Assembly (NCBI GenBank): GCA_947626795.1
Contig: CANQTH010000014.1
Coordinates: 1 to 45,896 of the forward strand
DNA: 45,896 bases
Reading direction: 5' to 3'
DNA from: an uncultured Lachnospiraceae bacterium
GTDB lineage: Bacteria; Bacillota; Clostridia; Lachnospirales; Lachnospiraceae
The translations under genes were made by a program, and so were the position numbers. How positions within the stretch are numbered: the first letter of the stretch is position 1; the number at the start of each line of letters is the position of its first letter. Under the pieces are notes generated by a model. That model saw only the letters and a program-made list of their open reading frames with translations, was not told where the DNA came from and did no database searches. Shown one piece after another: positions 178 to 36,683 of this stretch.

Positions 178-226
178 GCCGGATTCCGTAACTGTGAGGC
201 CGAAGGCTGAACAGTTACGGACGGTT
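178..226 (+). repeat. Intergenic mosaic repeat, module C
   Basis: Contains GGATTCCGTAACTGTGAGGC followed by CGAAGGCTGAACAGTTACGG. The ends, GTAACTGT and ACAGTTAC, form an inverted repeat, and GGCCGAAGGCT lies between them. The same module recurs near 4331, 10660 and 36640 and inverted near 22610. It precedes the pyr operon and lies outside any gene. Confidence 0.75.
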
Positions 227-245
227 GACGGTTACAGGTTTGATG

Positions 246-271
246 AAAAGGAGGTTGCCCCTCCTTTTTTT
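246..271 (+). terminator. Intrinsic terminator before the pyr operon
   Basis: A 9-bp stem (AAAAGGAGG with CCTCCTTTT, loop TTGCC) is followed by a T run. It could end an upstream transcript or act as an attenuator for pyrC, whose start lies 134 bases further on. No PyrR-type anti-antiterminator was recognised. The rest of 1-404 shows no gene. Confidence 0.65.
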
Positions 272-404
272 GTATGTTAAAATATAAGATAACAGGGCTG
301 AACTGTTGCAACAGGAAAGGAACGCAGGATCTTAGGAGGTAACTGTGTGGGGCGGGCGGCGGAAGCGCGCCTGCAGGAAAATTTTTCAGAAAGGATCATA
401 AATT

Positions 405-1679
405 ATGCTGCTTTTGATTAAGAATGGGACGGTGGTCAATCCGGGAGACCAGACGGAGGTAAAGGCGGATGTTCTTGTGGAGGATGGGGTGATCAAGAAG
501 ATCGCCCCGCGCCAGTCGGTCAGGGCGGAACGCGTGATCGACGCGAAGGGCTGTTATGTCATGCCTGGCTTTATCGATATGCACGTGCATCTGCGCGACC
601 CGGGTCAGGAGTACAAGGAGACGTTGGAGACAGGCGTGAAGGCGGCGGTTCACGGCGGGTTCACGACCGTGGTCGCGATGCCGAACACGAAGCCTGTCGT
701 GGACAACGAGGACGTCGTGAATTACGTCCATCACAAGGCGCAGAATATCCGGCTGGCCAACGTGCTGCAGACCGGGGCTGTCACGAAGGGGCAGCGCGGC
801 GAGGAACTGGCGGATATCGAGAAAATGGTGGAGGCGGGCGTCCCGGCGATCAGCGAGGACGGGAAGACCGTGATGAACGCCCAGTTGTGCCGCGAGGCCA
901 TGGCGCTTGCCGTAAAATACGGCATCCCGCTCCTGGCGCACTGCGAGGACGCGAACCTGGCGGGCAACGGCGTGGTGAACGCGGATGAGGCGACGGAGAA
1001 GATGGGATGGAAGGGCATTTCCAATTCCGTGGAAGACGTGATCCTGGCGCGCGACATCATCCTGGCGAAGGAGACAGGGGCCGCGCTCCATCTGTGCCAC
1101 TGCTCCACGAAGTTTGGCGTCCGCATGGTGGAGTTCGCGAAGCAGGAGGGCATCCGGGTGACGGCGGAGGTATGCCCGCATCATTTCACACTGACGAGCA
1201 GCGACATCAAGGAGAACGACGCCAATTACAAGATGAACCCGCCGCTGCGCACGAAGGAGGACGTGGAGGCCTTGCGCGAAGGGCTGAAGTCCGGCGTGAT
1301 CGACGTGATCGCGACCGACCACGCGCCGCATACGGCGATCGAGAAGGGCGAAGGGATGAGCCGCGCGCCGTTCGGCGTCGTGGGGCTGGAGACGGCGGCC
1401 GCCATAACGATGACGGAGCTGGTGGACAAGGGCTGGCTCACGATCATGCAGATGGCGGAAAAGATGAGCTACAACCCGGCGCGGATCCTCGGCCTGGACA
1501 AAGGGGTAGTGGAAGAAGGGAAGCCGGCGGACCTGGTCGTATTCGACGCTGAGAAAGAATATACGGTCGACCCGGACAGCTTTTATTCCAAAGGACGGAA
1601 CACGCCGTTCGCGGGCAGGAAAGTCAAGGGGATGGTCATGGCGACGGTCGTAGGCGGGAAGATAGCCTACCAGGAGTAG
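405..1679 (+). CDS. pyrC: Dihydroorotase
   Basis: Cyclises N-carbamoyl-L-aspartate to dihydroorotate, the third step of de novo UMP synthesis, in the cytoplasm. The 424-residue protein has the class-I dihydroorotase layout. DMHVHLRDPG near residue 60 supplies the first metal-binding His pair (H60, H62) and a substrate Arg. PNTKPVVDN follows, then the His motifs AHCED and CPHHF, and ATDHAPHT carries the catalytic Asp near residue 305. The start is an ATG preceded by AGAAAGGATC. It is the first gene of pyrC-pyrF-pyrK-pyrD, and pyrF begins 16 bases downstream. Codon use matches the neighbours. Confidence 0.97.
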   Translation: MLLLIKNGTVVNPGDQTEVKADVLVEDGVIKKIAPRQSVRAERVIDAKGCYVMPGFIDMHVHLRDPGQEYKETLETGVKAAVHGGFTTVVAMPNTKPVVDNEDVVNYVHHKAQNIRLANVLQTGAVTKGQRGEELADIEKMVEAGVPAISEDGKTVMNAQLCREAMALAVKYGIPLLAHCEDANLAGNGVVNADEATEKMGWKGISNSVEDVILARDIILAKETGAALHLCHCSTKFGVRMVEFAKQEGIRVTAEVCPHHFTLTSSDIKENDANYKMNPPLRTKEDVEALREGLKSGVIDVIATDHAPHTAIEKGEGMSRAPFGVVGLETAAAITMTELVDKGWLTIMQMAEKMSYNPARILGLDKGVVEEGKPADLVVFDAEKEYTVDPDSFYSKGRNTPFAGRKVKGMVMATVVGGKIAYQE

Positions 1680-1695
1680 GAGAAAGGATAAGGAT

Positions 1696-2625
1696 ATGAT
1701 CGATAAGTTAGCGGCAAAGATCCAAAAGACCCATGCCCCGGTCGTCGTGGGCTTGGACCCGATGCTTGGGTACATACCGGAACACATAAGGCAGGCGGCG
1801 TACGCGGAATGCGGGGAGACGCTCGAAGGGGCCGCGGAGGCGGTCTGGCGGTTCAACAAAGAGATCGTTGACTGCGTATACGACCTGATCCCGGCGGTAA
1901 AGCCGCAGATCGCCATGTATGAGCAGTTCGGGATCCCGGGGCTTATGGCGTTTAAGAAGACCGTGGATTACTGCCATGGGAAGGGCCTGATCGTCATTGG
2001 GGACGTAAAGCGCGGGGATATCGGCTCGACGTCCGCGGCGTATGCCGCGGGGCATATCGGGACGGTGGAGGTCGGGAGCAAGTCCTACCGCCCGTTTGAC
2101 GAGGATTTCGTCACAGTCAACCCCTATCTGGGGACAGACGGCGTCAAGCCGTTCGTGGACGCCTGCAGGGAAGGGGGGAAGGGGCTGTTCATCCTGGTGA
2201 AGACGTCCAACCCCTCCAGCGGCGAGTTCCAGGACAGGCTGATCGACGGCAGGCCGCTCTATGAGCTGGTCGGGGAAAAAGTGGCGGAGTGGGGCCGGGA
2301 CTGCATGGGAGGCTCCTACAGCCGCGTGGGCGCGGTCGTCGGGGCGACTTACCCCGAGGTGGGGAAAGCCCTGCGCAAGATCATGCCCAAGAGCTTTATC
2401 CTCGTGCCTGGATACGGCGCGCAGGGCGGAAAAGGGAAAGACCTCGCGCATTTCTTCAACGAGGACGGCCTGGGGGCGATCGTCAATTCTTCCCGGGGGA
2501 TCATCGCGGCGTACAAGCAGGAGGAGTATGCTTCTTTCGGGGAAAGGCATTTCGGGGAAGCGTCCCGGGCCGCCGTGGAAGCAATGGTGAAGGATATCAA
2601 CGGGGCATTGCAGGCCGCGAAGTAA
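1696..2625 (+). CDS. pyrF: Orotidine-5'-phosphate decarboxylase, long form
   Basis: Decarboxylates OMP to UMP, the last step of de novo pyrimidine synthesis. At 309 residues it belongs to the longer PyrF subfamily rather than the roughly 230-residue classical form. The active-site signature GDVKRGDIGSTSAAYA at residues 102-117 gives the Asp-Lys-Asp set (D103, K105, D108). GLDP near residue 19 is the N-terminal substrate motif, and a phosphate-binding VPGYGAQGG motif lies near residue 240. A good ribosome site (AGAAAGGATAAGG) precedes the ATG. It sits between pyrC and pyrK and is probably co-transcribed. Confidence 0.96.
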   Translation: MIDKLAAKIQKTHAPVVVGLDPMLGYIPEHIRQAAYAECGETLEGAAEAVWRFNKEIVDCVYDLIPAVKPQIAMYEQFGIPGLMAFKKTVDYCHGKGLIVIGDVKRGDIGSTSAAYAAGHIGTVEVGSKSYRPFDEDFVTVNPYLGTDGVKPFVDACREGGKGLFILVKTSNPSSGEFQDRLIDGRPLYELVGEKVAEWGRDCMGGSYSRVGAVVGATYPEVGKALRKIMPKSFILVPGYGAQGGKGKDLAHFFNEDGLGAIVNSSRGIIAAYKQEEYASFGERHFGEASRAAVEAMVKDINGALQAAK

Positions 2626-2653
2626 CGCGGCAGGCGCATTGAAGGAGAAGCGT

Positions 2654-3421
2654 ATGGCGGAAAAATTTAAGGAACAGGCGGTTGTGATCTGGCAGGAAGC
2701 GATTTCCTACGGGGTGTTCAGCCTGTGGCTGAAGACGGACCGGATCGCGTCTGGCGCAAAGCCGGGGCAGTTTTTGTCCGTCTATTGCCGGGATGGGAGC
2801 AGGCTGCTCCCGCGCCCGATCAGCATTTGCGAGATCGACAGGCACGACATGGCCGTCCGCCTGGCGTACCGCGTGGTCGGGAAAGGGACGGAAGAGCTGT
2901 CGCATCTGCAAAGGGGGGACAGCCTGGAAGTCGTGGGGCCGTTGGGGAACGGGTTCCCGCTCAAGGAAAAGAAGGCGTTTTTGATCGGCGGCGGGATCGG
3001 GATCCCTCCCCTGCTGCAGTTGGCGAAAGAGCTGCAGTGCGAGAAGCGGATCGTCCTGGGATACCGTGATTCCGTATTTTTGAAGGAGGCCTTTGAAAAA
3101 TACGGGGAAGTGTACGTGGCGACGGAGGACGGGAGCGAAGGGACGGAAGGCACCGTGCTGGACGCGATCCGGGCAAACGGGCTGGACGCGGAGATCGTCT
3201 ATGCCTGCGGCCCGACCGCCATGCTGCGCGCCGTGAAGGAATACGCGCGGGAGCGGAAGATGGAATGCTGGGTGTCGCTGGAAGAGCGGATGGCCTGCGG
3301 TATCGGGGCCTGCTTAGGCTGCGTGTGCAGGTCGAAGGAAAAGGACAGGCATACGAACGTGCGCAATAAGCGCATTTGCAAGGAAGGCCCGGTATTCCGT
3401 GCGGAGGAGGTGGAGTTTTAG
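2654..3421 (+). CDS. pyrK: Dihydroorotate dehydrogenase electron-transfer subunit
   Basis: This FAD/[2Fe-2S] partner of PyrDB carries electrons from dihydroorotate to NAD+. RPIS at residues 54-57 is the FAD-binding motif of ferredoxin-reductase-like proteins, and the Gly-rich IGGGIGIPPL at 111-120 contacts nucleotide. C215, C220, C223 and C242 are in the spacing expected for the [2Fe-2S] cluster. I chose the ATG at 2654 because AAGGAG lies 6 bases upstream; an in-frame TTG at 2639 would add five residues but has no ribosome site. The stop codon abuts the pyrD ATG, so translation is probably coupled. The length, 255 residues, is normal. Confidence 0.95.
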   Translation: MAEKFKEQAVVIWQEAISYGVFSLWLKTDRIASGAKPGQFLSVYCRDGSRLLPRPISICEIDRHDMAVRLAYRVVGKGTEELSHLQRGDSLEVVGPLGNGFPLKEKKAFLIGGGIGIPPLLQLAKELQCEKRIVLGYRDSVFLKEAFEKYGEVYVATEDGSEGTEGTVLDAIRANGLDAEIVYACGPTAMLRAVKEYARERKMECWVSLEERMACGIGACLGCVCRSKEKDRHTNVRNKRICKEGPVFRAEEVEF

Positions 3422-4321
3422 ATGGATATGAGGGTGGAAGTAGCGGGCGTTACGCTGAAAAACCCCGTCATGACGGCGTCTGGGACGTTTGGCTCGGGGG
3501 AAGAATTTGCGGAGTTCGTGGATCTTAACAAGCTGGGGGCCGTCGTGACGAAGGGCGTCGCGAATGTCCCGTGGGAGGGCAACCCGACCCCGCGCATCGC
3601 GGAGACGCACGGGGGGATGCTCAACGCCGTGGGGCTGCAGAACCCGGGCGTCGATGTGTTTATCGAGCGCGATATCCCGTTTTTGGCAAAATATGACACG
3701 AAGGTCGTCGTGAACGTATGCGGGAGATCCGTGCGGGATTACTGCGAGGTGGCGGAGCGGCTGTCGGATCAGGACGTGCATATGCTGGAGATCAACATTT
3801 CCTGCCCCAATGTGAAAGAGGGCGGCATCGCGTTCGGCCAGGATCCGAGGGCGGTGGAGGAGATCACGCGCGAGGTGAAAAAATACGCGAGGCAGCCGAT
3901 AGTCATGAAGCTAAGCCCGAATGTCACGGACATCACGGAGATGGCGAAGGCGGCGGAGGCGGGCGGCGCGGACGCGGTTTCTTTGATCAACACGCTCACG
4001 GGCATGAAGATCGACGTCCATCGCAGGACGTTCGCGCTTGCGAATCAGACCGGGGGGCTGTCCGGCCCCGCCATCCATCCGGTGGCCGTCCGCATGGTAT
4101 ACCAGGCCGCCCACGCCGTGCAGATCCCGGTGATCGGGATGGGCGGGATCGCGTCGGCGGAGGACGCGGTCGAGATGATCCTGGCGGGCGCGACGGCGGT
4201 GGCGGTCGGGACGGCGAATTTCAACAATCCCACGGCGACGATGGAGATCGTGGACGGCATCCGGGACTATATGAAAACGTACGGCGTAGCGGATATAAAA
4301 GAGCTGATCGGGGCAGTATAA
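3422..4321 (+). CDS. pyrD: Dihydroorotate dehydrogenase B, catalytic subunit
   Basis: FMN-dependent oxidation of dihydroorotate to orotate with PyrK as partner, giving an NAD+-linked cytoplasmic enzyme suited to anaerobes. The 299-residue protein has the class-1B pattern. NPVMTASGTFG is near the N-terminus, and EINISCPN carries the catalytic Cys (C128) in place of the Ser of class-2 enzymes. GMGGI and AVGTANF form the C-terminal FMN phosphate site. It starts on the base after the pyrK stop; the GGAGGTGGAG at the end of pyrK can serve as ribosome site. pyrE does not follow, unlike many clostridial pyr operons. Confidence 0.96.
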   Translation: MDMRVEVAGVTLKNPVMTASGTFGSGEEFAEFVDLNKLGAVVTKGVANVPWEGNPTPRIAETHGGMLNAVGLQNPGVDVFIERDIPFLAKYDTKVVVNVCGRSVRDYCEVAERLSDQDVHMLEINISCPNVKEGGIAFGQDPRAVEEITREVKKYARQPIVMKLSPNVTDITEMAKAAEAGGADAVSLINTLTGMKIDVHRRTFALANQTGGLSGPAIHPVAVRMVYQAAHAVQIPVIGMGGIASAEDAVEMILAGATAVAVGTANFNNPTATMEIVDGIRDYMKTYGVADIKELIGAV

Positions 4322-4330
4322 GGATATATG

Positions 4331-4375
4331 GGAAGATTCCGTAACTGTGAAGACGAAGGCTGAGCTGTTATGGGA
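4331..4375 (+). repeat. Mosaic repeat, module C, at the pyrD-glycosyltransferase junction
   Basis: A diverged copy of the module seen at 178: GATTCCGTAACTGTGAAGAC followed by GAAGGCTGAGCTGTTATGG. It fills most of the gap after pyrD and happens to be open in the frame of the next gene, giving a false 14-residue N-terminal extension. Confidence 0.7.
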
Positions 4376-4388
4376 AAAGGAGAATGAG

Positions 4389-5832: not shown

Positions 5833-5875
5833 TCGGCGATCGGCGGCGGGGCAAGGCGAGAAACTGCAGGGGGAG

Positions 5876-6052
5876 ACGCGGGAAGCAGGCGTTTTCCTTA
5901 AACGGAAGGAAGCAAAGGGGACGCGGGAAGCAGGCGTTTCCTTAAACGGAAGGAAGCAAAGGGGACGCGGGAAGCAGGCGTTTCCCTAAACGGAAGGAAG
6001 CAAAGGAGACGCGGGAAGCAGGCGTTTCCTTTGAGCGAAAGGATAGGAGGAC
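5876..6052 (+). repeat. 44-45 bp tandem repeat between thiS and thiG
   Basis: Four head-to-tail units start at 5876, 5921, 5965 and 6009, each beginning ACGCGGGAAGCAGGCGTTT. The first three contain TTCCTTAAACGGAAGGAA or a one-base variant, a hairpin with stem TTCCTT/AAGGAA. The fourth diverges after GCGTTTCC into the thiG ribosome site. The array replaces what would be a short spacer inside the operon. Confidence 0.9.
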
Positions 6053-8065: not shown

Positions 8066-8774
8066 ATACATTGCGGTGTCGAATCGGGAATTGTTCCAGG
8101 AGTTCTGCGGGAAGCGGGATCTGGAAAGCTACGCGGGATTTTTGGCATGGCTTGCCTGCGGTTTTTTCGCAGAGGAAGGCGGGCAAGGACAGCCGATGGG
8201 CTTTTGCGCAGAAGAAGGCGTGGAAGGGCGGCCGACAGGCTTTTGCGCAGAGGAAGGCGGGAAAAGGCGGCCGGATATCCTGACCGTCCGGGAAAAAGAG
8301 CTGGATGAGGGCGCGTACGTGGAATTGTTTTCCAATGTCTGGGAGAAATGCAGGAGCCTGGCGTCTGGGCACCATGCCTTGCTGACGCCGCACACCTGCC
8401 TTGCGGCCGCGCGAAAGACAGGTTGCCCCCGCATCCATTTGCCCCTGCGCTTGCTGCGCGAGCATAGGGAAGCGGGAACGCTTGCGGGGATAGAGGAAGT
8501 CGGCGTGTCCGTCCATTCCGTGGAAGAGGCGCGGGAGGCGGAGCAGCTCGGGGCGTCTTATCTCACGGCGGGCCATATTTTCCGCACGGACTGCAAGCGG
8601 GGCGCGCCGCCCAGGGGAACCGCGTTTTTGGAGGAAGTCTGCGAAAGCGTTGAGATCCCGGTATACGCGATCGGCGGGATCCATCCGGAGACGCTGCCCG
8701 AGGTTTTTCAGACGCGGGCGGCGGGAGCCTGCATGATGTCGGAATATATGGGATGCTGGGAAATCAGCAGGTAA
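8052..8774 (+). CDS. thiE: Thiamine-phosphate synthase with a repeat insertion
   Basis: Joins HMP-pyrophosphate and thiazole phosphate to thiamine phosphate. The TIM-barrel features are clear in the second half: VSVHSVEEA, GASYLTAGHIF, the phosphate loop around CKRGAPPRG and VYAIGGI. Residues 37-75 are three in-frame 13-residue repeats (GFFAEEGGQGQPM, GFCAEEGVEGRPT, GFCAEEGGKRRPD) that split the N-terminal region and are not a family feature. TenI, a paralogue, is possible, but the operon position favours ThiE. It starts inside the last codons of thiH. The stop codon lies in the terminator stem. Confidence 0.85.
   Translation: MSTFKYIAVSNRELFQEFCGKRDLESYAGFLAWLACGFFAEEGGQGQPMGFCAEEGVEGRPTGFCAEEGGKRRPDILTVREKELDEGAYVELFSNVWEKCRSLASGHHALLTPHTCLAAARKTGCPRIHLPLRLLREHREAGTLAGIEEVGVSVHSVEEAREAEQLGASYLTAGHIFRTDCKRGAPPRGTAFLEEVCESVEIPVYAIGGIHPETLPEVFQTRAAGACMMSEYMGCWEISR
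8160..8276 (+). repeat. 39-bp in-frame tandem repeat inside thiE
   Basis: Units start at 8160, 8199 and 8238, each about GGCTTTTGCGCAGAGGAAGG plus a G-rich remainder. The period is a multiple of three, so the reading frame survives. Confidence 0.9.
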
Positions 8775-8811
8775 CAGGGAAGCCTTACGGCTTCCCTGTT
8801 ACCTGCTTTTT
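8767..8811 (+). terminator. Terminator of the thi operon
   Basis: A perfect 18-bp stem (8767-8784 with 8789-8806), loop TTAC, then TTTTT. The arms include the last codons and stop of thiE. The GTAACAGGGAAGCC arm resembles the mosaic repeat family. Confidence 0.9.
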
Positions 8812-8826
8812 GCAGTGCGAACGCGC

Positions 8827-8985
8827 TTAAATCTCGAACTGTTTTACCATCTCATTCAACATGGCGGCCTGCGCGGCAAACTGCTGCGATGTTGCGGAGC
8901 TTTCTTCCGCCGTTGCGGAGTTGTCCTGGATCCCTTCGGAAATATCCTCGATCCCAAGCCGGATCTGTTCCATGCTCTGCGCCTG
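8827..8985 (-). pseudogene. C-terminal remnant of a methyl-accepting chemotaxis protein
   Basis: The minus-strand reading from 8985 gives QAQSMEQIRLGIEDISEG, then IQDNSATAEESSATSQQFAA and a stop after MVKQFEI. This is the standard last 50 residues of an MCP signalling domain (the NSATAEESSA block and the terminal helix). The sensor, membrane and HAMP regions and most of the signalling hairpin are missing; upstream there is a run of 15-bp repeats and then a tRNA. The fragment is therefore a dead 3' tail. It shows that the lineage had chemotaxis. No ribosome site or plausible start precedes it. Confidence 0.85.
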
Positions 8986-9043
8986 GACGACGGAAACATG
9001 GACGACGGAAACATGACGACGGAAACATGACGACGGAAACATG
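8986..9043 (+). repeat. 15/14-bp microsatellite abutting the MCP remnant
   Basis: Four units: GACGACGGAAACATG twice, then ACGACGGAAACATG twice. The array begins exactly where MCP similarity ends, so it marks the break point of the deleted gene. Confidence 0.9.
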
Positions 9044-9464: not shown

Positions 9465-9609
9465 AAAACTTGTATGGAAACAGCAGGAAGATTTGCATGG
9501 AAGGCATGGGCAAGGGGCTGGAAAGGCACTGCCCGGACGCGATGGACGGACTTTAGACGCGCCCGGCTGTCCTGACGGCCCGCGGCTGTGCCTGGACGGA
9601 GGGATTTGC

Positions 9610-10551
9610 ATGAGTCTTTTTTCGACGATCGGGGCGGCAGGCGCCCGCAGCGGGGAACAAGGCTCCGTATTTGCGGGGAATCTGTGCCTTCTTGGGGGCG
9701 GGAATTTAAAAAGCACGCAGGATAAGCTGGAACGCCAGCAAAAGGCGGACAGGCAGATCGCATTTTGGGAAGGGCAGAAAGAAAATTTAAAAAGCATGAA
9801 GTGCGATACGGTGGAAGAGATCAAGGAAAAGCTCGAAATGTTCCATCATTATGAAGAAGAGGTCGCGGCGGCGAAAAAGCAATATAATATGGAGCAGATG
9901 AAGCATATTTTGGATGAAGCGCAGGAGATGGGCGAGCAGAATGCCAAGGCGGCCGAGCAGGCCGAGCCGAAGACGCCGGAAGAACGCAGGGAAGAGATGC
10001 GGGAGGAAGCGCTGGGCGAAGAGAAGGACGAGAGCGTTCTGGAAGAGATGCTCGAAGAGATGCCGGAAGAGTTAAAAGAGCTGGAAGAGGTTATCTCGGA
10101 AACCCAAAAGGAGCAGGAGGCCGAACTGGAGGAGCAGTCCATGGAGGCCCAGACGGAATATGCGGCGGATGCAGAAAAACTGGAGGAGCAGTCCTTAGAG
10201 GCGCAGGCGGAGCGCGCGGCGGAAGCGGAAGAGCTGGAGGAGCAGTCCTTAGAAGCGCAGGCGGAGCGCGCGGCGGAAGCGGAAGAGCTGGAGGAGCAGT
10301 CCTTAGAAGCGCAGGCGGAGCGCGCGGAATTGGAAGAGCAGTCCTTAGAGGCCCGGACAGAGCGCGCGGAATTGAAAGAGCAGTCCGTGGAGACATGGGC
10401 AGAGCGCGCGGAAGAATTAGAAGAGCAGTCCTTAGAGGCCCGGGCGGAGCGCGCGGCGGAAGCGGCGGGCAGAAAAGGAAGGGCCGCATATCATGTTTGG
10501 CGGGAGAATGAATGGAAGCGCCGATACTACGGGATGGATGTGAAGGTTTAG
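9610..10551 (+). CDS. Coiled-coil repeat protein of unknown function
   Basis: I do not recognise a family. The 313-residue protein starts MSLFSTIGAAGARSGEQG behind a GGACGGAGGG ribosome site. Residues 40-175 are strongly charged and helical, with KLERQQKADRQIAFWEGQKE and a MEQMKHILDEAQEMGEQ stretch. From residue 174 there are about seven degenerate copies of EEQSLEAQAERAAEAEEL with 18-, 14- and 15-residue periods, ending in a basic tail (RKGRAAYHVWRENEWKRRYY). No signal peptide or membrane segment is seen, so it is probably cytoplasmic or a secreted flagellar-type protein without a leader. The sigma-28-like site upstream suggests co-regulation with motility genes. The repeats are near-identical in DNA, so copy number should vary between strains. 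Confidence 0.75.
   Translation: MSLFSTIGAAGARSGEQGSVFAGNLCLLGGGNLKSTQDKLERQQKADRQIAFWEGQKENLKSMKCDTVEEIKEKLEMFHHYEEEVAAAKKQYNMEQMKHILDEAQEMGEQNAKAAEQAEPKTPEERREEMREEALGEEKDESVLEEMLEEMPEELKELEEVISETQKEQEAELEEQSMEAQTEYAADAEKLEEQSLEAQAERAAEAEELEEQSLEAQAERAAEAEELEEQSLEAQAERAELEEQSLEARTERAELKEQSVETWAERAEELEEQSLEARAERAAEAAGRKGRAAYHVWRENEWKRRYYGMDVKV
10129..10466 (+). repeat. Tandem coding repeats, units of 54, 42 and 45 bp
   Basis: Seven units, each beginning with a variant of GAGGAGCAGTCCTTAGAGGC. The first three are 54 bp, the next two 42 bp and one 45 bp, all in frame. Confidence 0.85.
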
Positions 10552-10568
10552 GCAATGATCTCGCCCAG

Positions 10569-10690
10569 GGCTTTGCGCTTGCTGCAAAGTCCGTAAGAAC
10601 GCGTAAATTTTGCCGAGTGGGAATCCGGCTCTTTGCCGAAGGCAAAGAGCCGGATTCCGTAACTGTGAGGCCGAAGGCTGAACGGTTATG
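10569..10690 (+). repeat. Full mosaic intergenic repeat (modules A-B-C)
   Basis: Module A is GGGCTTTGCGCTTGCTGCAA with its pair. Module B starts GTAAGAACGCGTAAATTTTG and contains a perfect 18-bp hairpin, arms 10620-10637 and 10641-10658 with loop GAA. Module C starts GTAACTGTGAGGCCGAAGGC. The same order is found at 36541-36683, and the reverse order inverted at 22602-22748. Confidence 0.85.
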
Positions 10691-11998: not shown

Positions 11999-12055
11999 GT
12001 AACAGTTCAGCTTAGGACTTTGCACTTGCTGCAAAGTCCTGAGTTGAACTGTTAC
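11999..12055 (+). repeat. Mosaic repeat module A as a 26-bp hairpin
   Basis: Arms 11999-12024 and 12030-12055 pair over 26 bases around loop CTTGC. The only two deviations are G-U compatible. The outer arms read GTAACAGTTCAG and CTGTTAC, and the core is GGACTTTGCA/TGCAAAGTCC. Confidence 0.85.
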
Positions 12056-14022: not shown

Positions 14023-14044
14023 AGGCAATTTTGCACAAAAATAA

Positions 14045-14115
14045 TAACCATTCAGCCCAGGACTTTGCACTTGCTGCAAAGCCCGTAACCAGGAAGCCGA
14101 AGGCTGAATCGTTAC
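14045..14115 (+). repeat. Mosaic repeat modules A and C
   Basis: TAACCATTCAGCCCAGGACT starts module A, with CTTTGCACTTGCTGCAAAG as core, followed by a module-C end GAAGCCGAAGGCTGAATCGT. Module B is absent. Confidence 0.75.
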
Positions 14116-20462: not shown

Positions 20463-21527
20463 ATGGACATTAAATTTATAAAAAGGGACGTGCTGAAGGA
20501 AAAGCCGGATCAGAAAAACCTTGGCTTTGGCAAGTATATGACGGATTATATGTTCTCCATGGACTGGGAGAAGGAGAAGGGCTGGCATGACGCGCGGATC
20601 GAGCCGTACGGCCCGGTGGAGATCAACCCGTCCTGCGTGACTTTGCATTACGCGCAGGAGACGTTCGAGGGCTTGAAGGCGTACCGCACGAAGGAGGACA
20701 AGATCCTGCTGTTCCGCCCGGAGATGAATGCAAGGCGCATGATCAAGTCGAACGAGCGTCTCTGCATGCCGGCGTTCCCGGAGGATATGTTCGTGGAAGC
20801 GGTGGAGGAGCTGGTGAAGGTGGAGCGGGACTGGATCCCTTCCGAGCCGGAGACATCCCTGTATATCCGCCCGTTCATGTTCGCGACGGAGGCTTCCCTG
20901 GGCGTTCATATGGCGGTTTCCTACCGCTTCATGGTCATCTGCTGCCCGGTGGGCGCATACTACCCGGAAGGCATCAACCCGGTGAAGATCTTAGTGGAAG
21001 ACGAGCTGGTGCGCGCGGTCAAAGGCGGGACGGGCTTCACGAAATGCGGCGGCAATTACGCGGCGTCCATCTTAGGCCAGGTGCGCGCGGAGGAAAAAGG
21101 CTGCACGCAGGTGCTTTGGCTTGACGGCGTGAACCGCAAGTATGTCGAGGAAGTCGGGACGATGAACATCATGTTCAAGATCAGCGGCGAGATCTACACG
21201 GCCCCGATCGAGGGGACGGTGCTTGCGGGCGTCACACGGGATTCCATCATCCATATTTTGAAGGATTGGGGCTACAAGGTAAACGAGACGCATCTGTCCG
21301 TGGACGACCTGATGAAGGCGGGCCATGACGGCACGTTGGAAGAGGCGTTCGGCACGGGGACGGCGGCCGTGGTTTCCCCGGTCGGGGAATTTGTCTACAA
21401 GGACGATTCCGTGATCGTGAACGATTTCAAGATCGGCAGCCTGACCCAGAAGCTCTACGATTACCTGACGGGGATCCAGTGGGGCAACGAAGAAGACAAA
21501 TACGGCTGGACGTTAGAAGTAAAATAA
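20463..21527 (+). CDS. ilvE: Branched-chain amino-acid aminotransferase
   Basis: PLP-dependent last step of valine, leucine and isoleucine synthesis, and first step of their breakdown. At 354 residues it is the longer, eukaryote-like BCAT form. K194 in GGTGFTKCGGNYAAS is the PLP lysine. YAQETFEGLKAYR and RPEMNARRM near residue 70-95 and EEVGTMNIMF near 225 are typical. The ATG follows GGATGGAGGAG. It stands apart from ilvBN and ilvD. Confidence 0.95.
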   Translation: MDIKFIKRDVLKEKPDQKNLGFGKYMTDYMFSMDWEKEKGWHDARIEPYGPVEINPSCVTLHYAQETFEGLKAYRTKEDKILLFRPEMNARRMIKSNERLCMPAFPEDMFVEAVEELVKVERDWIPSEPETSLYIRPFMFATEASLGVHMAVSYRFMVICCPVGAYYPEGINPVKILVEDELVRAVKGGTGFTKCGGNYAASILGQVRAEEKGCTQVLWLDGVNRKYVEEVGTMNIMFKISGEIYTAPIEGTVLAGVTRDSIIHILKDWGYKVNETHLSVDDLMKAGHDGTLEEAFGTGTAAVVSPVGEFVYKDDSVIVNDFKIGSLTQKLYDYLTGIQWGNEEDKYGWTLEVK

Positions 21528-21649
21528 GGAAGCCGCAGGGCTGAACCGTTATAAAATATAACATAAGTTTACAGTGGGGCTGTCGCATTGCTGAGTGGAA
21601 ATCTGTGAAGCGGCAGCCCTGTTTCTACATAAGGAGAGGAGATAAGACG

Positions 21650-22090
21650 ATGGAAAGACGGAAGACATACCTGGCGTATTTCTTATGCGCCGTGCTGGCC
21701 GCGTCGCTCGCGTTCGCGGGCTGCGGCGGGAACAGGGAAGAGAGCGCGCCCGGAGAAGAGTCCGGCGCGGCCTTAGAAGGCGGCGAGCTTGGGGAAGGGA
21801 GCAGGGAGTTCGCGTTTTCCGTAGTGGACGGGGATGGGGAAGAGACGCGGTTTTCCATCCATACGGACAAGGAGACGGTCGGGGAGGCCTTAGAAGAGCT
21901 TGGCCTGATCGAAGGGGAAGAAGGGCAGTACGGCCTTTATGTCAAGACGGTCAACGGCATAACGGCGGATCCGGAGGAGGACGGCGCATACTGGGCGTTT
22001 TACGAGGATGGGGAGTACGCGGGTTCGGGTGTTGACGGCACGGCGATCGAGGAAGGCGTGGAATACGCCCTGCGCCTGGAAAAAGAGTGA
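21650..22090 (+). CDS. DUF4430-type lipoprotein
   Basis: A 146-residue secreted lipoprotein. The signal peptide TYLAYFLCAVLAASLAFAGC ends at lipobox cysteine C25. An acidic linker follows (residues 27-50), and then a domain resembling DUF4430 (FSIHTDKETVGEALEELGLI, YWAFYEDGEYAG, YALRLEKE). In Clostridia such proteins sit beside ECF-type transporters and may bind a vitamin-like ligand; that role is inferred. I start at the ATG at 21650 with AGGAGAGGAGATAAG; an extension to 21605 is not needed. The stop overlaps the next gene (GTGA). A small hairpin (GGGGCTGTCGC with GCGGCAGCCC) precedes it near 21576-21618. Confidence 0.8.
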   Translation: MERRKTYLAYFLCAVLAASLAFAGCGGNREESAPGEESGAALEGGELGEGSREFAFSVVDGDGEETRFSIHTDKETVGEALEELGLIEGEEGQYGLYVKTVNGITADPEEDGAYWAFYEDGEYAGSGVDGTAIEEGVEYALRLEKE

Positions 22091-22605
22091 GGCTGACGAC
22101 AAGGGAGACGGCCGTGTTCGCGATGTTAGGCGCGTTGATGTACGCATCCAAGATGATGATGGAAGTCCTGCCGAACATTCATCTTGTGGGCGCGCTTACG
22201 ATCGCCTATACGCTCGTCTACCGGAAAAAGGCGCTGTATCCCATCTACCTGTATGTGTTCCTGGACGGCGCGCTCTGCGGCTTTGCGGCGTGGTGGGTCC
22301 CTTATCTGTATATCTGGGCGGCACTCTGGGGCGCGGCGATGCTCCTGCCGAAGGATATGCCGAAAAAAGCGGGCGCGTTCGCCTGCATGCTCCTGTGCGC
22401 GGCGCACGGCTTCCTGTTCGGGACGCTCTACGCCCCGGCGCAGGCGATCCTGTACGGGCTGGATTTCCGGGGGATGGCTGCCTGGATCGTCGCGGGCCTG
22501 CCGTGGGATTTTTTGCACGGGGTAAGCAATTTCTTCTGCGGCGCGCTCATCCTGCCGATCGCGGGCGTGCTGCGCCTTGCCGAGCGGGACGCGAAGGATT
22601 TGTAA
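22087..22605 (+). CDS. ECF transporter S component
   Basis: Substrate-binding membrane subunit of an energy-coupling-factor importer. The 172-residue protein has about six hydrophobic segments. It begins RLTTRETAVFAMLGALMYAS, followed by KMMMEVLPNIHLVG, the pattern of small S components. The GTG start overlaps the stop of the DUF4430 gene, so the two are translationally coupled. The A, A' and T subunits are not in the window and are likely shared. The substrate is unknown; a vitamin or similar compound is a guess. Confidence 0.8.
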   Translation: MRLTTRETAVFAMLGALMYASKMMMEVLPNIHLVGALTIAYTLVYRKKALYPIYLYVFLDGALCGFAAWWVPYLYIWAALWGAAMLLPKDMPKKAGAFACMLLCAAHGFLFGTLYAPAQAILYGLDFRGMAAWIVAGLPWDFLHGVSNFFCGALILPIAGVLRLAERDAKDL

Positions 22606-22748
22606 CAGGGCGGCCTTCCGGCTGCCCTGTTACGGAATCCGGCTCATTTTAAGTTTGCCTTCGGCAAAGAGCCGGAATCCCGCCTGGCAAAATTTACACG
22701 TTCTTACGGACTTTGCAGCAAGTGCAAAGTCCGGGGCTGCCCTGTTAC
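22602..22748 (-). repeat. Inverted copy of the A-B-C mosaic repeat
   Basis: From the plus strand it starts GTAACAGGGCGGCCTTCCGG, a hairpin at 22602-22633. It then has the B hairpin with GGCAAAGAGCCGGAATCC and reversed GTTCTTACGGACTTTGCAGC, and ends CTGTTAC. It lies between the ECF gene and the ara operon. Confidence 0.8.
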
Positions 22749-22776
22749 AGAGATTTCCATTAATTTTGAAAAAGGG

Positions 22777-28511: not shown

Positions 28512-28523
28512 AAGCAAATGTCA

Positions 28524-28553
28524 GGATACCCCGCAGCTTGCTGCGGGGTATCC
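28524..28553 (+). other. Hairpin after the pentulokinase gene
   Basis: 13-bp arms GGATACCCCGCAG and CTGCGGGGTATCC with loop CTTG. No T run follows, so it is more likely a processing or stability element than a terminator. Confidence 0.6.
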
Positions 28554-28560
28554 ATGCACT

Positions 28561-28760
28561 GGAGCGGGGCCGCGCGTGATGCGCGGAAAAAGACATATGC
28601 AGGAGCAGGGCCGCGCCATGCGCGGGAAAAGACTTATGCAGGAGCGGGGCCGCGCGTGATGCGCGGGAAAAGACTTATGCAGGAGCAGGGCCGCGCCATA
28701 CGCGGGAAAAGACTTATGCAGGAGCGGGCGCGCGTGATGCGCATGAAAAGATATGTGCGG
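28561..28760 (+). repeat. Alternating 41/39-bp tandem repeat before araD
   Basis: Five units start at 28561, 28602, 28641, 28682 and 28721. Type A (41 bp) contains GGGGCCGCGCGTGATGCGCG, type B (39 bp) contains GGGCCGCGCCATGCGCGGG; the order is A-B-A-B-A'. All carry a GCGCG-type hairpin and GAAAAGACTTATGCA. Spacers are absent, so it is not a CRISPR array. No supported coding region crosses it, as the frame shifts between units. Confidence 0.9.
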
Positions 28761-28802
28761 CCTGAGATATTAATGATATAGAAGAAATAGGGAGGGAACG
28801 TG

Positions 28803-31632: not shown

Positions 31633-31657
31633 AAAGAATCTAGGAGGAGAGAGAGAA

Positions 31658-32143: not shown

Positions 32144-32177
32144 GAAAGCAGGAAGATGAGGCGCAAGGCCTTTGTTG

Positions 32178-32210
32178 GGCAGGAAACTGGTTACAGCTTC
32201 CTGCCTTTTT
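32178..32210 (+). terminator. Terminator after the DUF6465 gene
   Basis: GGCAGGAA...TTCCTGCC with an inner ACTG/CAGC extension and a GTTA loop, then TTTTT. Confidence 0.85.
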
Positions 32211-32238
32211 GTAACGCGCCGGGAGGGGAGGATGCCGG

Positions 32239-32910: not shown

Positions 32911-33946
32911 TTCTTATCTGAGGCGCCATCGGGTCGGGATTGGGCTGTATGCAGTCTTTGCCGCGGTCTTTGCGGGCGTGTTCAGCCTGTACCATCTTCC
33001 GCTTGATCCGGTGTGCTATTGCCTCGAACTGTGCGCTGCCGTCGCTTTTCTTGTACTCCTCGTCGACGGCGTAAGATACCGGAGGCGGGCGGGGGAACTG
33101 GAACGCCAGAGAAAAGCGGTGAAAAACGGCGTGGAATTTTTGCCAGACCCGGAGGATGGGATCGAGCGGCTTTATCAGGAGCTGCTAAGAAGCTCGCAGG
33201 AGGAACGCATCCGCCAGGTGGCGGAGCTGATGCGGGAAAAAACGGACCTGACGGATTATTTTACCTTGTGGGTGCATCAGGTGAAGACGCCGATCGCGGC
33301 GATGCGCCTGCTTTTGCAGGAGGAGGCGGGCCGCCTGGAACGTTTCGGCGCCGCCCGTCAGGAAGAGCGGGCCGGGCGCCATGAATGGGACGCGGACGGG
33401 TCGATCGCGTGGCTGGGCGAGCAAAAACAGGAGATGGAAGCGGAGTTGTTTGAGGTCGAGCAGTATGTGGGGATGGCCCTGCAATACATCCGGCTGAAAA
33501 GCGGGACGAATGATTTCGTGCTGCGGGAGTACGAAGTGGACGGGATCGTGCGTCAGGCGGTCCGCAAGTACGCGCCGATGTTCATACGCAAGAAGCTCTC
33601 GCTTTCTTACGAGCCGCTTGGGATGAAGGCCGTCACGGATGAGAAGTGGATGGTGTTCGTCTTAGAACAGATTTTGGGAAACGCCGTCAAGTATACGGCT
33701 TCCGGCAGCATTTCCATTTACCGGGAAAATTCCTGCCTGACCGTGGAAGATACCGGGATCGGGATCTTGGAAGAGGATCTGCCGCGGATCTTCGAGAAAG
33801 GCTACACGGGATACAACGGCAGGAGCGACAAAAAGGCGTCCGGGATCGGGCTGTATTTGGTAAAAGGGATCTTAGACAAGCTCGGGCATAAGGTCAGCGT
33901 GGAATCGGAAGCGGGAAAAGGGACGAAAGTGCGGCTGATGTTTTAA
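32897..33946 (+). CDS. Sensor histidine kinase (BceS-like, intramembrane)
   Basis: A 349-residue kinase with two N-terminal membrane helices (residues 14-32 and 39-57) joined by a very short external loop, so it probably senses through a transporter or membrane signal. H127 in YFTLWVHQVKTPIAAM is the phospho-acceptor. The ATP-binding domain follows, with QILGNAVKYT, DTGIGI and GIGLYLVKGIL. Such kinases normally sit with BceAB-type ABC exporters; here the next gene is a UvrA paralogue. The ATG overlaps the regulator gene. Confidence 0.93.
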   Translation: MRWISSYLRRHRVGIGLYAVFAAVFAGVFSLYHLPLDPVCYCLELCAAVAFLVLLVDGVRYRRRAGELERQRKAVKNGVEFLPDPEDGIERLYQELLRSSQEERIRQVAELMREKTDLTDYFTLWVHQVKTPIAAMRLLLQEEAGRLERFGAARQEERAGRHEWDADGSIAWLGEQKQEMEAELFEVEQYVGMALQYIRLKSGTNDFVLREYEVDGIVRQAVRKYAPMFIRKKLSLSYEPLGMKAVTDEKWMVFVLEQILGNAVKYTASGSISIYRENSCLTVEDTGIGILEEDLPRIFEKGYTGYNGRSDKKASGIGLYLVKGILDKLGHKVSVESEAGKGTKVRLMF

Positions 33947-34041
33947 AGGAGAATTGCTTATGGAAAAGAAGGCGGCGCCGCGTGAGCGGAGGAGCGCCTC
34001 GGCACGGATGTTTTAAAGGAGAATTGCTTATGGAAAAGAAG
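33937..34041 (+). repeat. Direct repeat at the kinase-UvrA junction
   Basis: A 35-base block is present at 33937-33971 and again at 34007-34041, 70 bases apart. It spans the last codons of the kinase, an AAAGGAGAATTGCTT ribosome site and the first codons (ATGGAAAAGAAG) of the UvrA gene. Only the second copy leads into the long gene. Confidence 0.9.
33960..34016 (+). other. Possible 18-codon open frame made by the duplication
   Basis: The first copy of the duplicated start gives MEKKAAPRERRSASARMF and a stop. It has the same ribosome site as the true start. It may be a by-product, or a short leader peptide that affects translation of the downstream gene. Confidence 0.35.
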
Positions 34042-36528
34042 AGTCTGCCGTCGCACATTGAGGTGCGGGGTGCGAAGGCGCATAATCTGAAAAATGTGGA
34101 CGTGGATATCCCGCTTCATAAGATCGTCGGGATCGCGGGCGTTTCCGGCTCCGGGAAGTCGTCCCTCGCGCTCGGCGTGGTGTACGCGGAAGGGTCGAGG
34201 CGTTATCTGGAGTCGCTTTCCACCTATACCAGGCGGCGCATGTCTCAGGCGCAGAAAGCGCAGGTCGACGAGGTCTTGTATGTCCCGGCTTCGCTGGCCC
34301 TGCGTCAGCGCCCGGGCGTGCCGGGCATCCGCAGCACGTTCGGGACGGGAACGGAATTGCTGAACAGCCTGCGGCTCATGTTTTCCCGCCTTGCCTCGCA
34401 TCGCTGCCCGAACGGGCATTACCTTTTGCCGTCGCTGAACGTCGCCGCGGAACGGGAGCTTGTCTGCCCGGAATGCGGCGCGCGCTTTTACGCCCCCGGC
34501 GCGGAAGAGCTGGCGTTTAATTCGGCCGGGGCCTGCCGCAGCTGCGACGGAACGGGGACGGTCCGGACGGTGGATGAGTCGACGCTTGTCCCGGACGATT
34601 CCCTTACGATCGAGGAAGGCGCGGTCGCGCCGTGGCAGACGCTGATGTGGTCGCTGATGAAGGATATCGCCAGGGACCATGTGGGCGTCCGCACAGACGT
34701 GCCGTTCCGTGACCTGACGGAGCGGGAGAAGGAGCTGGTGTTCCACGGGCCTGCGAAAAAATACCATGTGCTTTATCATAATGAAAAGACGAATACCGCG
34801 GGGGAAATGGATTTTACCTATTTTAACGCGGTTTACACGGTGGAGAACGCGCTTTCCCATGTGAAGGATGAGAAAGGCATGAAGCGCGTGGAGAAGTTTT
34901 TGAAAACCGGGCCATGCCCCGCGTGCGGCGGCAGCAGGCTGTCGGAGGAAGCCCGCGCGCCGAGGATCCGGGGGATTTCCCTGGCGCAAGCCTGCCAGAT
35001 GCCGCTTTTGGACCTGACAGCCTGGGTCGGGGGCGTCCCGGCGTCGATGCCGGAGGAGATGCGGCCGATGGCGGAGAGCATTTGCGAGTCCTTCCTGCAC
35101 GCCGCCAAGCGGCTGCTGGACTTAGGGCTGTCTTATCTGTCCCTTGACCGCGAGGCGTCCACGCTTTCCACGGGGGAACGCCAGAGGATGCAGCTTGCCC
35201 GCGCGGTCCGCAACCGCACGACCGGGGTCTTATATGTGCTGGACGAGCCGTCCATCGGGCTGCATCCGCAGAACTTAAAGGGCGTCACGGGCGTGATGGA
35301 CGATCTGGTCGCGGACGGGAACTCGGTGCTTTTGGTCGACCACGACACGAATATCTTATCCCACGCGGACTGGCTGATCGAGCTTGGCCCGGAGGCGGGC
35401 GCAGGAGGCGGGACTGTCATAGCGGAAGGGACGATCCCTGATATCGTGAAAAACAAAAAGTCAAGGATCGGGCCTTTTTTGTCCGGGGAAGAGGCGGTGG
35501 CCAGGAAGCGGGACGAGGATCCGGCAGGCCTTTTTTCACAGGGCAGGATCCATTTGTCCACGGGGCGGATCCATACCGTGCAGCCGCTTGAGGTGGATTT
35601 CCCGAAAGGGCGCCTGATCGCCGTTACCGGGGTCTCCGGCTCGGGCAAGACGACGATGGCACTTGAGAGCCTGGTTCCCGCGCTGGAGTCCGCGATAAGC
35701 GGCGAAAAGCTCCCGGGCCATGTGAAGGCTGTCGCGGCGGAGGGGATCCGCCATGTGAAATTGATCGACGCGACGCCGATCGGGATCAACGTGCGCTCTA
35801 CGGTCGCCACTTACGCCGACGTCCACGACGAGCTTCGTAAGGCGTTCGCCCGGACGGAAGAGGCGAAGGCTAAAGGCTATAAGGCGGGCGATTTTTCCTA
35901 TAATACCGGGAAGCTGCGCTGCCCGCTCTGCGATGGGACGGGGATGGTCAGCCTGGACGTGCAGTTTTTGCCGGACGTGGACATCCCCTGCCCGGACTGC
36001 CGCGGCTCGCGGTATTCTAAGGAGGCGTATCGGGTGAGGCGGTTCCCGAAAAAAAGCAGGGAGGGCTTCTCGCTGCCGGAATTGATGGACATGAGCGTGG
36101 ACGAGGCGTTCGCGGCCTGCGCGGATATGCCGAAAGTGCGCCGGAAGCTCGAAACGCTGCGCAGCCTTGGGCTTGGCTACCTCACTCTGGGAGAAGAGAC
36201 GCCGGGGCTTTCGGGCGGCGAGGCGCAGCGGCTGAAATTGGCCAGCGAGATGGGGCGCGGGCAGGAAGATTCCGTGTTTGTCTTTGACGAGCCGACCATC
36301 GGGCTGCATCCGTTAGACGTCCGGACGCTGCTGTCGGTCTTCCGCCGCCTGACGGAATCCGGCGCGACGGTCGTCGTCATCGAGCATGACCTGGACATGA
36401 TCAAAAATGCGGATTACTGCATTGATATGGGGCCGGGCGGCGGCGTCCACGGAGGACGCGTCGTCGCGGGCGGGACGCCGGAGGAGATCAAAGAAAATAA
36501 GGAGAGCGTGACGGGCAGGTATCTGTGA
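34030..36528 (+). CDS. Class-II UvrA-like ABC protein
   Basis: An 832-residue tandem-ABC protein of the UvrA family, shorter than housekeeping UvrA (about 940). The first Walker A is GVSGSGKSSLALG (near residue 38), the second GVSGSGKTTMALE (near 545). Both signature segments are present (STGERQRMQLARA and SGGEAQRLKLASE). The zinc-type CxxC pairs (CPECG with CRSCDG, CPLCDG with CPDCRG) remain. A shortened N-terminal insertion suggests loss of the UvrB-binding region. Class-II UvrA proteins are implicated in drug or DNA-adduct resistance. I use the ATG at 34030 after AAAGGAG. Its association with the two-component system is unusual. Confidence 0.92.
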   Translation: MEKKSLPSHIEVRGAKAHNLKNVDVDIPLHKIVGIAGVSGSGKSSLALGVVYAEGSRRYLESLSTYTRRRMSQAQKAQVDEVLYVPASLALRQRPGVPGIRSTFGTGTELLNSLRLMFSRLASHRCPNGHYLLPSLNVAAERELVCPECGARFYAPGAEELAFNSAGACRSCDGTGTVRTVDESTLVPDDSLTIEEGAVAPWQTLMWSLMKDIARDHVGVRTDVPFRDLTEREKELVFHGPAKKYHVLYHNEKTNTAGEMDFTYFNAVYTVENALSHVKDEKGMKRVEKFLKTGPCPACGGSRLSEEARAPRIRGISLAQACQMPLLDLTAWVGGVPASMPEEMRPMAESICESFLHAAKRLLDLGLSYLSLDREASTLSTGERQRMQLARAVRNRTTGVLYVLDEPSIGLHPQNLKGVTGVMDDLVADGNSVLLVDHDTNILSHADWLIELGPEAGAGGGTVIAEGTIPDIVKNKKSRIGPFLSGEEAVARKRDEDPAGLFSQGRIHLSTGRIHTVQPLEVDFPKGRLIAVTGVSGSGKTTMALESLVPALESAISGEKLPGHVKAVAAEGIRHVKLIDATPIGINVRSTVATYADVHDELRKAFARTEEAKAKGYKAGDFSYNTGKLRCPLCDGTGMVSLDVQFLPDVDIPCPDCRGSRYSKEAYRVRRFPKKSREGFSLPELMDMSVDEAFAACADMPKVRRKLETLRSLGLGYLTLGEETPGLSGGEAQRLKLASEMGRGQEDSVFVFDEPTIGLHPLDVRTLLSVFRRLTESGATVVVIEHDLDMIKNADYCIDMGPGGGVHGGRVVAGGTPEEIKENKESVTGRYL

Positions 36529-36540
36529 GGGGGAGAGAGC

Positions 36541-36683
36541 CGTTATACCCAGGACTTTGCGCTTGCTGCAAAGTCCGTAAGAACGTGTAAATTTTGCCGA
36601 GTGGGAATCCGGCTCTTTGCCGAAGGAAAATTTTAAATGAGACGGATTCCGCAACAGGGAAGCCGGAAGGCTGAACTGTTACG
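36541..36683 (+). repeat. Mosaic repeat, modules A-B-C
   Basis: CAGGACTTTGCGCTTGCTGC begins module A, then GTAAGAACGTGTAAATTTTG (B), and a C end GAAGCCGGAAGGCTGAACTG. Same order as at 10569, but the B hairpin is interrupted by AAAATTTTAAATGAGAC. Lies between the UvrA-like gene and mscL. Confidence 0.8.

What the first reader, a model, noticed from the sequence alone, without database searches (positions are those of the whole stretch)
178..36683. A mosaic family of hairpin-forming intergenic repeats
Three sequence modules (A: GGACTTTGCACTTGCTGCAA; B: GTAAGAACGYGTAAATTTTG plus an 18-bp stem; C: GTAACTGTGAGGCCGAAGGC) recur at 178, 4331, 10569, 11999, 14045, 22602 (inverted), 36541 and, in pieces, at 8767 and 21528. 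Modules occur singly, in pairs or as A-B-C. Some deviations between arms are G-U compatible, which suggests selection as RNA. All copies are between genes. This looks like a REP/MITE-type element, but I know of no description that matches; there is no matching transposase in the window.
Basis: seen in the sequence. Interest (0 to 1): 0.75.

Follow-up and report, generated by a model that had tools for sequence, protein, structure and literature searches.

The report
MITE likely moved by IS66 transposon
The repeated hairpin sequences are copies of a tiny jumping element that carries no gene of its own, present in some 200 copies in this bacterium and also in many relatives, and very probably moved by the enzyme of a larger IS66-type transposon that has the same ends.

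Summary
Modules A, B and C are parts of one 146-147 bp element with 14-bp terminal inverted repeats (TIRs: GTAACAGTTCAGCC...GGCTGAACTGTTAC), two internal hairpins and a terminal hairpin; single modules are end remnants or shortened forms. The host genome holds an extrapolated 200 or more copies. Copies carry 8-bp target duplications: exact in 33 of 69 end pairs from other genomes, with a peak only at length 8. It is therefore a MITE, not a REP. A likely mobiliser was found: an intact 1,813-bp IS66-type element (494-aa ORF), six identical copies in one genome of the same family, with the same 14-bp ends and exact 8-bp duplications in the five copies with readable flanks. No such transposase was found in the host genome. 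Hairpin B changes between genomes with pairing kept. Within the genome G-U and pair-breaking transitions are equal (53 vs 52), so the G-U argument for RNA selection fails. Copies lie just after stop codons, mostly co-oriented with tandem genes (53:16), which is confounded with replication direction. The transposition history is well supported; the hairpins' role is open.

The parts
22602..22748 (-). Full-length 147-bp element, both TIRs, hairpins A, B, C; flanked by AAGGATTT / AGAGATTT (6 of 8 match)
   Evidence: model R1 167.7 bits; flanks; the stop codon of the called gene 22087-22605 lies in the first bases of the element
36536..36682 (+). Near full-length element, left TIR decayed (no recognisable 8-bp duplication, 3 of 8), right TIR perfect; starts 8 bp past the end of a UvrA-like gene
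   Evidence: 158.9 bits
10552..10689 (+). Near full-length element, left TIR decayed, target duplication AGGTTTAG / GGGTTTAG (7 of 8)
   Evidence: 147.2 bits; flanks
11999..12055 (.). 57-bp compact form: TIR - hairpin A - TIR, nearly palindromic; duplication AGCGCGAG / AGCGTAAG (6 of 8)
14044..14115 (+). 72-bp compact form, hairpin A + terminal hairpin C, hairpin B missing; flanks 5 of 8
   Evidence: 61.4 bits
8771..8802 (.). Solo terminal hairpin (module C); lies in a perfect 19-bp inverted repeat 8766-8807 followed by TTTTT; flanks show no duplication (1 of 8); contains the stop codon of the upstream ThiE-like gene
   Evidence: (I18); the terminator scanner made no call there
188..218 (+). 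Right-end remnant: hairpin C, preceded (from about 158) by part of the 3' side of hairpin B
   Evidence: flanks 1 of 8
4341..4371 (+). Right-end remnant (hairpin C) with a trace of the hairpin B arm before it
   Evidence: flanks 2 of 8
21523..21552 (+). Right-end remnant: 3' part of hairpin C and right TIR (GGCTGAACCGTTAT)
   Evidence: (D10)
22594..22601 (.). Left copy of the target duplication of the 22602-22748 element (right copy 22749-22756)

Best explanation
[quoted passage not shown] Shown: a 146-147 bp element with 14-bp terminal inverted repeats and 8-bp target duplications, in an extrapolated 200 or more copies here and in tens of copies in many genomes of the same family; shortened forms with their own 8-bp duplications; an intact transposon with identical ends and the same duplication length in a relative. 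Inferred: the IS66-type transposase (ISBst12-like, single ORF) binds the shared ends and moves the MITE in trans; in this genome the transposase was present once and has been lost, or lies in the missing part of the draft. Inferred, with less support: the internal hairpins A and B do not serve transposase recognition (the parent and other elements with the same TIRs lack them) but keep the inserted DNA or its transcript harmless or useful between genes, so that lineages with intact stems persisted.
For: TIR: 310 matches against 1 control. Target duplications: in other genomes the mean identity of flanks is 0.73 at length 8 against 0.28 shuffled, near background at other lengths from 3 to 13; 33 of 69 pairs 8/8 and 46 of 69 at least 7/8. 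Own copies: 47 of 97 with readable flanks have at least 6/8. Of 8 compact forms (57-101 bp) in other genomes 5 have 8/8, one 6/8, one 2/8 and one is unreadable. Parent: six identical 1,813-bp copies in G429, perfect 14-bp TIRs, 8/8 duplications in the 5 copies with readable flanks, 494-aa ORF, PF03050 73.6 bits against cut-off 23.1. Related transposase genes of at least 60% identity in other genomes end next to the same TIR (L185, L195, L205, L209, L210, L211, L212, L240, and L186 with one mismatch). L205 is an internally deleted parent with both TIRs and AAAAAATT on both sides. The published ISBst12-group element ISDge4 has ends GTGACTACTCAGCA / GTAACTGCTCAGCA, an 8-bp repeat and one ORF (PMC12898284, passages). 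Other TIR-sharing elements of 326-701 bp without hairpins A and B also have 8/8 duplications (3 of 5 inspected).
Against: No IS66-type transposase was found in the host genome. Transposase relatives of at least 60% identity were seen in only 6 of the 39 genomes searched (G200, G201, G203, G207, G213, G215; my reading), and the genome with the intact parent has only 2 weak MITE matches among 92 scored candidates. Trans-mobilisation is inferred from shared ends, not shown. The internal A/B sequence has no source in the parent. NCBIfam's IS66 model scores the intact transposase below its curated cut-off (151.6 against 180), so it is a divergent member.
Confidence: 0.92

Rival explanations
1. REP/BIME-type repeats spread by a tyrosine (Y1, RAYT) transposase.
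For: Short hairpins between genes, GTAA at hairpin feet, positions right after stop codons.
Against: Clear 8-bp target duplications and 14-bp TIRs shared with a DDE transposon; Y1 transposition makes no duplication (recalled). No search for a Y1 transposase was made genome-wide.
Confidence: 0.02
2. A conserved RNA element (for example a post-stop stabiliser, processing site or attenuator) spread by transposition and kept by selection on the host transcript.
For: Hairpins A and B diverge less (about 4%) than linker (7%) and TIRs (8-13.5%); in the 47 copies with good duplications 3.5% against 7% and 5-8%. Compensated stem changes between genomes. Co-orientation with tandem genes 53:16 (p 9e-6) and 23:10 in other genomes (p 0.035); median 11 bp (own) and 29 bp (others) after the upstream stop.
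Against: G-U-compatible and pair-breaking single transitions are equal (53:52); the 80 best copies have only 4 compensated pairs; orientation is confounded with the leading strand (42:16; only 4 lagging-strand tandem cases, 2:2); loss of ends inflates TIR divergence in copies without duplications; no Rfam family reaches its gathering score at the elements, only sub-threshold matches at one of them.
Confidence: 0.25
3. Stem compensation is a mutational by-product: template switching between the arms of palindromes rewrites both arms at once; no selection on structure.
For: Double changes are Watson-Crick in 23 of 25 cases while G-U intermediates are not favoured, as expected if both arms change together.
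Against: Most doubles (19 of 23) sit in the 19 lowest-ranked copies, which include a second subfamily, so the number of events is small; it does not explain why hairpins diverge less than the linker.
Confidence: 0.35

Closest known systems
IS66 family, ISBst12 group (for example ISDge4; PMC12898284, passages read)
   Same: Ends beginning GTAAC and containing TCAGC, 8-bp duplication, single transposase ORF with DDE_Tnp_IS66 domain in the parent
   Different: The MITE has no ORF; its hairpin core is absent from the parent; the parent's transposase is below the NCBIfam cut-off
BOX elements of Streptococcus pneumoniae (PMC3049150, passages read)
   Same: Short modular A-B-C repeats, strong predicted folding, TIRs resembling those of an IS (ISSpn2), internal module can be absent
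   Different: No relation of sequence is claimed (none was tested); here the parent is IS66-type with 8-bp duplications, and I did not see hairpin B in tandem arrays
Prokaryotic MITEs in general (review PMC10969869, passages read)
   Same: Short, folded, mobilised in trans, found between genes
   Different: The review's main text as held does not contain the word IS66
REP/BIME elements (recalled)
   Same: Position just after stop codons, hairpins, high copy number
   Different: Target duplications and DDE-type ends here

Membership tests
MITE | Short non-coding element with terminal inverted repeats | tested here: met
   146-147 bp, 14-bp TIRs
MITE | Target site duplication of fixed length | tested here: met
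   8 bp, peak only at k = 8; 47 of 97 own copies at least 6/8
MITE | Ends shared with an autonomous transposon | tested here: met
   1,813-bp element in G429 with identical 14-bp ends and duplication length
MITE | Mobilised in trans by that transposase | not testable with these tools
   needs an experiment
IS66 family (parent element) | DDE_Tnp_IS66 transposase | tested here: met
   PF03050 73.6 bits, cut-off 23.1; but NCBIfam NF033517 151.6 bits is below its cut-off of 180
IS66 family (parent element) | Ends starting GTAA and 8-bp direct repeat | tested here: met
   the rule itself is recalled, supported by ISDge4
ISBst12 group (parent element) | Single ORF | tested here: met
   one ORF of at least 150 aa within the 1,813 bp, 494 aa
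REP/RAYT | No target duplication | tested here: not met
   8-bp duplications
REP/RAYT | Associated Y1 transposase | not tested
   20 of 43 called window proteins were scanned against Pfam and none matches a transposase family; no genome-wide search for Y1
BOX | Sequence homology to boxA/boxC | not tested
   no BOX sequence was aligned; resemblance is of design only
Rfam family | Match over gathering score | tested here: not met
   only tmRNA and a tRNA in the window; two sub-threshold matches in 36500-36720

The most novel reading that the evidence does not exclude
The hairpin A-B core is a functional post-stop element acting in the transcript (or as a DNA hairpin at the fork) that IS66-type transposition has spread across a whole bacterial family, and it is under selection at many loci after insertion, so that hundreds of operons per genome share one mobile regulatory module.
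Probability: 0.22. Interest if true: 0.7.

Novelty: new member of a known kind. Interest (0 to 1): 0.45.

Why it matters
It gives this repeat a boundary and a likely engine. Genomes of this family carry many copies, and several contigs of one short-read assembly end inside it. The parent element makes trans-mobilisation by an IS66-type enzyme directly testable, a family whose transposition mechanism is called insufficiently characterised in PMC12898284 (passage). The dense, post-stop, mostly co-oriented insertions offer many natural experiments on how hairpins between genes change expression.

Tried and rejected
Independent modules: rejected, they are parts of one element. REP/RAYT: rejected on duplications. 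High-scoring IS66 elements of MITE-bearing genomes as parents: of the 30 IS66 loci searched for the TIR with up to 2 mismatches, 5 showed any TIR-like site (L159, L168, L172, L180, L181); L172 and L180 had one at the end of a transposase stretch and the divergent subgroup around L180 was followed. Selection as RNA from G-U changes: not supported. A MAFFT alignment across genomes put hairpin B out of register, so stem arms were measured from fixed anchors; a first version picked wrong anchors in the linker and was replaced, where 42 of 105 pattern occurrences were measured and 63 left out (I did not sort them; other stem type, contig ends and compact forms are among them); one of the 20 arm combinations kept (L114) is not a hairpin. 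Parent in viral contigs: none; in plasmids: 60 records, all below 60% identity. Solved structures: no match to the parent transposase by sequence. Promoter/terminator scan at 8600-9000: nothing at the solo hairpin. Replication against transcription as cause of the orientation bias: could not be separated. Printed descriptions, by listing unless said: searches found 0 papers (searched letters of the TIR and hairpin A); three papers, none on topic by title and abstract start; eight papers, of which passages of PMC9769881 and PMC3189936 were read and name IS66 only in tables of insertion sequences; one search counted 481 papers for two of three terms and listed 8, all on eukaryotic elements, so it decides little. 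The library lacks most subscription journals.
Full report
Observation. The window (G000:C14, a 2.89-Mb draft in 144 contigs) holds the repeats at all places named. Alignment of copies from the genome shows one element of 146-147 bp: left TIR GTAACAGTTCAGCC; hairpin A GGACTTTGC-ACTTGCT-GCAAAGTCC; linker GTAAGAACGTGTAAATTTTGCCGAGTG; hairpin B (12-bp outer stem GGAATCCGGCTC/GAGCCGGATTCC with an inner 6-bp stem and a bulge); hairpin C, whose 3' arm is the right TIR GGCTGAACTGTTAC. Compact forms lack B, or B and C; solo C hairpins are end remnants or the smallest form.

Copy number. The TIR pattern with up to one mismatch occurs 310 times against 1 for the reversed pattern. A covariance model built from 32 copies finds 95 matches at E <= 0.1 in 777,547 bases of this genome (the window plus 39 stretches of contigs C1-C10), 58 of them at E < 1e-5; scaled to the genome, about 216 at the stricter level. 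Some near-palindromic copies are counted on both strands in the looser set.

Mobility. For end pairs 26-200 bp apart, the flanks were compared at lengths 3-13. In 69 pairs from other genomes (70 found, one with repeated flanks dropped) mean identity at length 8 is 0.734 against 0.276 for shuffled partners, and close to background at other lengths; 33 of 69 are 8/8, 46 of 69 at least 7/8; the pairs include internal C hairpins, which are expected to fail. In 29 own pairs it is 0.526 against 0.274. In 97 own copies with readable flanks (99 aligned, 2 unreadable) 47 match at 6 or more of 8. In the window, 10552-10689 has 7/8, 22602-22748 and 11999-12055 have 6/8, the others tested 5/8 or less. Of 8 compact forms of 57-101 bp in other genomes, 5 have 8/8, one 6/8, one 2/8, one unreadable, so compact forms move as units.

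The parent. PF03050 (IS66) has no match in the host genome. In 28 genomes that hold the MITE's left end (chosen from the pattern hits), 18 have PF03050 matches. Most IS66 loci inspected do not have these ends (25 of 30 without a TIR-like site), but a divergent group does: L180 and its relatives end next to the TIR, L172 is a short element with both TIRs and a transposase remnant, without a clear duplication, and L205 is an internally deleted copy with both TIRs and an 8/8 duplication. Several of this group (L180, L205, L242) have a small hairpin at their ends like module C. Searching the genus of G399 gave G429, with six identical 1,813-bp copies; both 14-bp ends are perfect and the duplication is 8/8 in the five copies whose flanks can be read, the sixth being flanked by N. 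Its only ORF of at least 150 aa is 494 aa, PF03050 73.6 bits, NCBIfam IS66 151.6 bits, below that model's cut-off of 180. ISDge4, an ISBst12-group IS66 element caught transposing, has very similar ends, an 8-bp repeat and one ORF (PMC12898284, passages). The G429 parent has no hairpin A motif and no significant similarity to the MITE core, and the same holds for five 326-701 bp elements with the same TIRs in the host's own genus (a MITE from another genome as positive control matched at 4e-31); none of the five resembles the parent and three have 8/8 duplications. So the TIRs seem sufficient for mobility, and the hairpins must have another reason. Against this picture: parent-like transposases of at least 60% identity are present in only 6 of 39 genomes searched (my reading), and G429 itself has only 2 weak MITE matches among 92 scored candidates.

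Distribution. The 104 stretches returned (scan stopped at its limit; 80 printed there, the other 24 seen) are titled as Lachnospiraceae, Eubacterium, Clostridia, unclassified bacteria or named genera such as Mediterraneibacter, Parablautia and Hominisplanchenecus; that all belong to one family is my inference. Exact TIR matches occur in 115 of 397 genomes drawn from the host's family, host included, with at least 5 matches in 47 by my count of that listing; the reversed control has a match in 13 of 397, never more than one (my count), so one or two matches can be chance. In the host's genus 24 of 29 (host included) have at least one, 11 have 10 or more, and the counts run from 0 to 142. A DNA search with the full element matched 7 of 200 family genomes, the host among them. 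The distribution is patchy within one genus, as for a mobile element. The 34 genomes all match the model, with 1 to 92 matches (92 is the scoring cap), but most were chosen as carriers; the same-genus G176 has one weak match.

Structure. Folding of three copies gives z-scores of -7.4, -9.7 and -7.0. Between genomes the hairpin B arms change together: of 20 distinct arm combinations, 88 of 100 cells in the first five variable pairs form a pair, against a mean of 70.7 and a maximum of 84 in 2000 reshufflings; slid partners pair in 18-49% (42 of 105 occurrences measured). A second stem type (GCATCAAGCC/GGCTTGATGC) is also present. Within the genome there is little such signal: in 32 copies one double change, reached by 105 of 500 shuffles; in 99 copies (2,673 cells) 2,459 unchanged, 54 gaps, 53 single G-U-compatible, 52 single broken transitions, 30 single broken transversions, 23 double Watson-Crick, 2 double broken; 19 of the 23 doubles are in the 19 lowest-ranked copies, several of which form a second subfamily. 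The equality 53:52 argues against strand-specific RNA selection on copies. Hairpins A and B diverge less (about 4%) than linker (7%), right TIR (8%) and left TIR (13.5%), leaving out subfamily positions. Part of the TIR excess is probably end loss: in the 39 copies with eroded duplications (3 of 8 or less) the TIRs are worse while A and B are nearly unchanged. In the 47 copies with good duplications the order remains (left TIR 8%, linker 7%, right TIR 5%, A and B 3.5%). This is a modest sign of constraint, not proof.

Context. With gene calls from my own codon-usage script (coding fraction 0.838), 106 copies (58 from the window and C1-C10, 48 from stretches fetched around copies) fall as 69 between tandem genes, 13 divergent, 8 convergent, 11 without a called neighbour and 5 mostly inside an ORF. 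Between tandem genes 53 have the direction of the genes and 16 the opposite (p 9e-6); the median distance is 11 bp from the upstream stop and 87 bp to the next start. In other genomes 33 of 47 copies are tandem, 23:10 (p 0.035), medians 29 and 96 bp (several copies per genome, so not fully independent). The genome is strongly leading-strand biased, so orientation also follows the leading strand as judged by GC skew (42:16); only four tandem cases lie on the lagging strand (2:2). Transcription and replication cannot be told apart here.

Conclusion. A MITE family of IS66 (ISBst12-like) type; transposition history firmly supported, mobilisation in trans inferred, role of the hairpins open. I found no description in the papers searched (limits in Tried and rejected), in a library without most subscription journals. 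It is a new member of a known kind, of more than routine interest because the likely parent, the structured core and the insertion pattern are all in hand.

Noticed in passing
L337, L338, L339, L340 (G434) and L341 (G449): Relatives in the host's own genus carry other non-autonomous elements of 326, 501 and 698-701 bp with the same 14-bp TIRs and no detected similarity to the IS66 parent or the MITE core; 3 of the 5 inspected have exact 8-bp duplications.
   Followed up: partly
window 8766-8807: A solo hairpin C sits in a perfect 19-bp inverted repeat (longer than the element's arms) followed by TTTTT right after a ThiE-like gene, as if taken over as a terminator; the scanner did not call it.
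   Followed up: partly
window 38787-39123: Long run of CAT/GAC-rich repeats inside a 410-aa ORF (38165-39397), by the codons a His/Asp-rich, possibly metal-binding stretch (D1, 4).
   Followed up: no
window 5872-6043: Four units about 44 bp apart (GGAGACGCGGGAAGCAGGCGTTT...) between called genes (D8/D9, 71).
   Followed up: no
window 10110-10464 and 28561-28759: Tandem repeats of 42-54 bp spacing within the ORF 9493-10551, and of about 40 bp within 28518-28781 (D2-D4, 4).
   Followed up: no
L059, L060, L067, L086, L095, L113, L136, L151 (IMSAGC_002): Contigs of this assembly end 27-53 bp inside the element, so the repeat breaks the assembly.
   Followed up: no
L196, L203: Other IS66-type elements with a 558-563-aa open frame have similar but different ends (GTTACTGTTCAG...), suggesting several end specificities in one group.
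   Followed up: no
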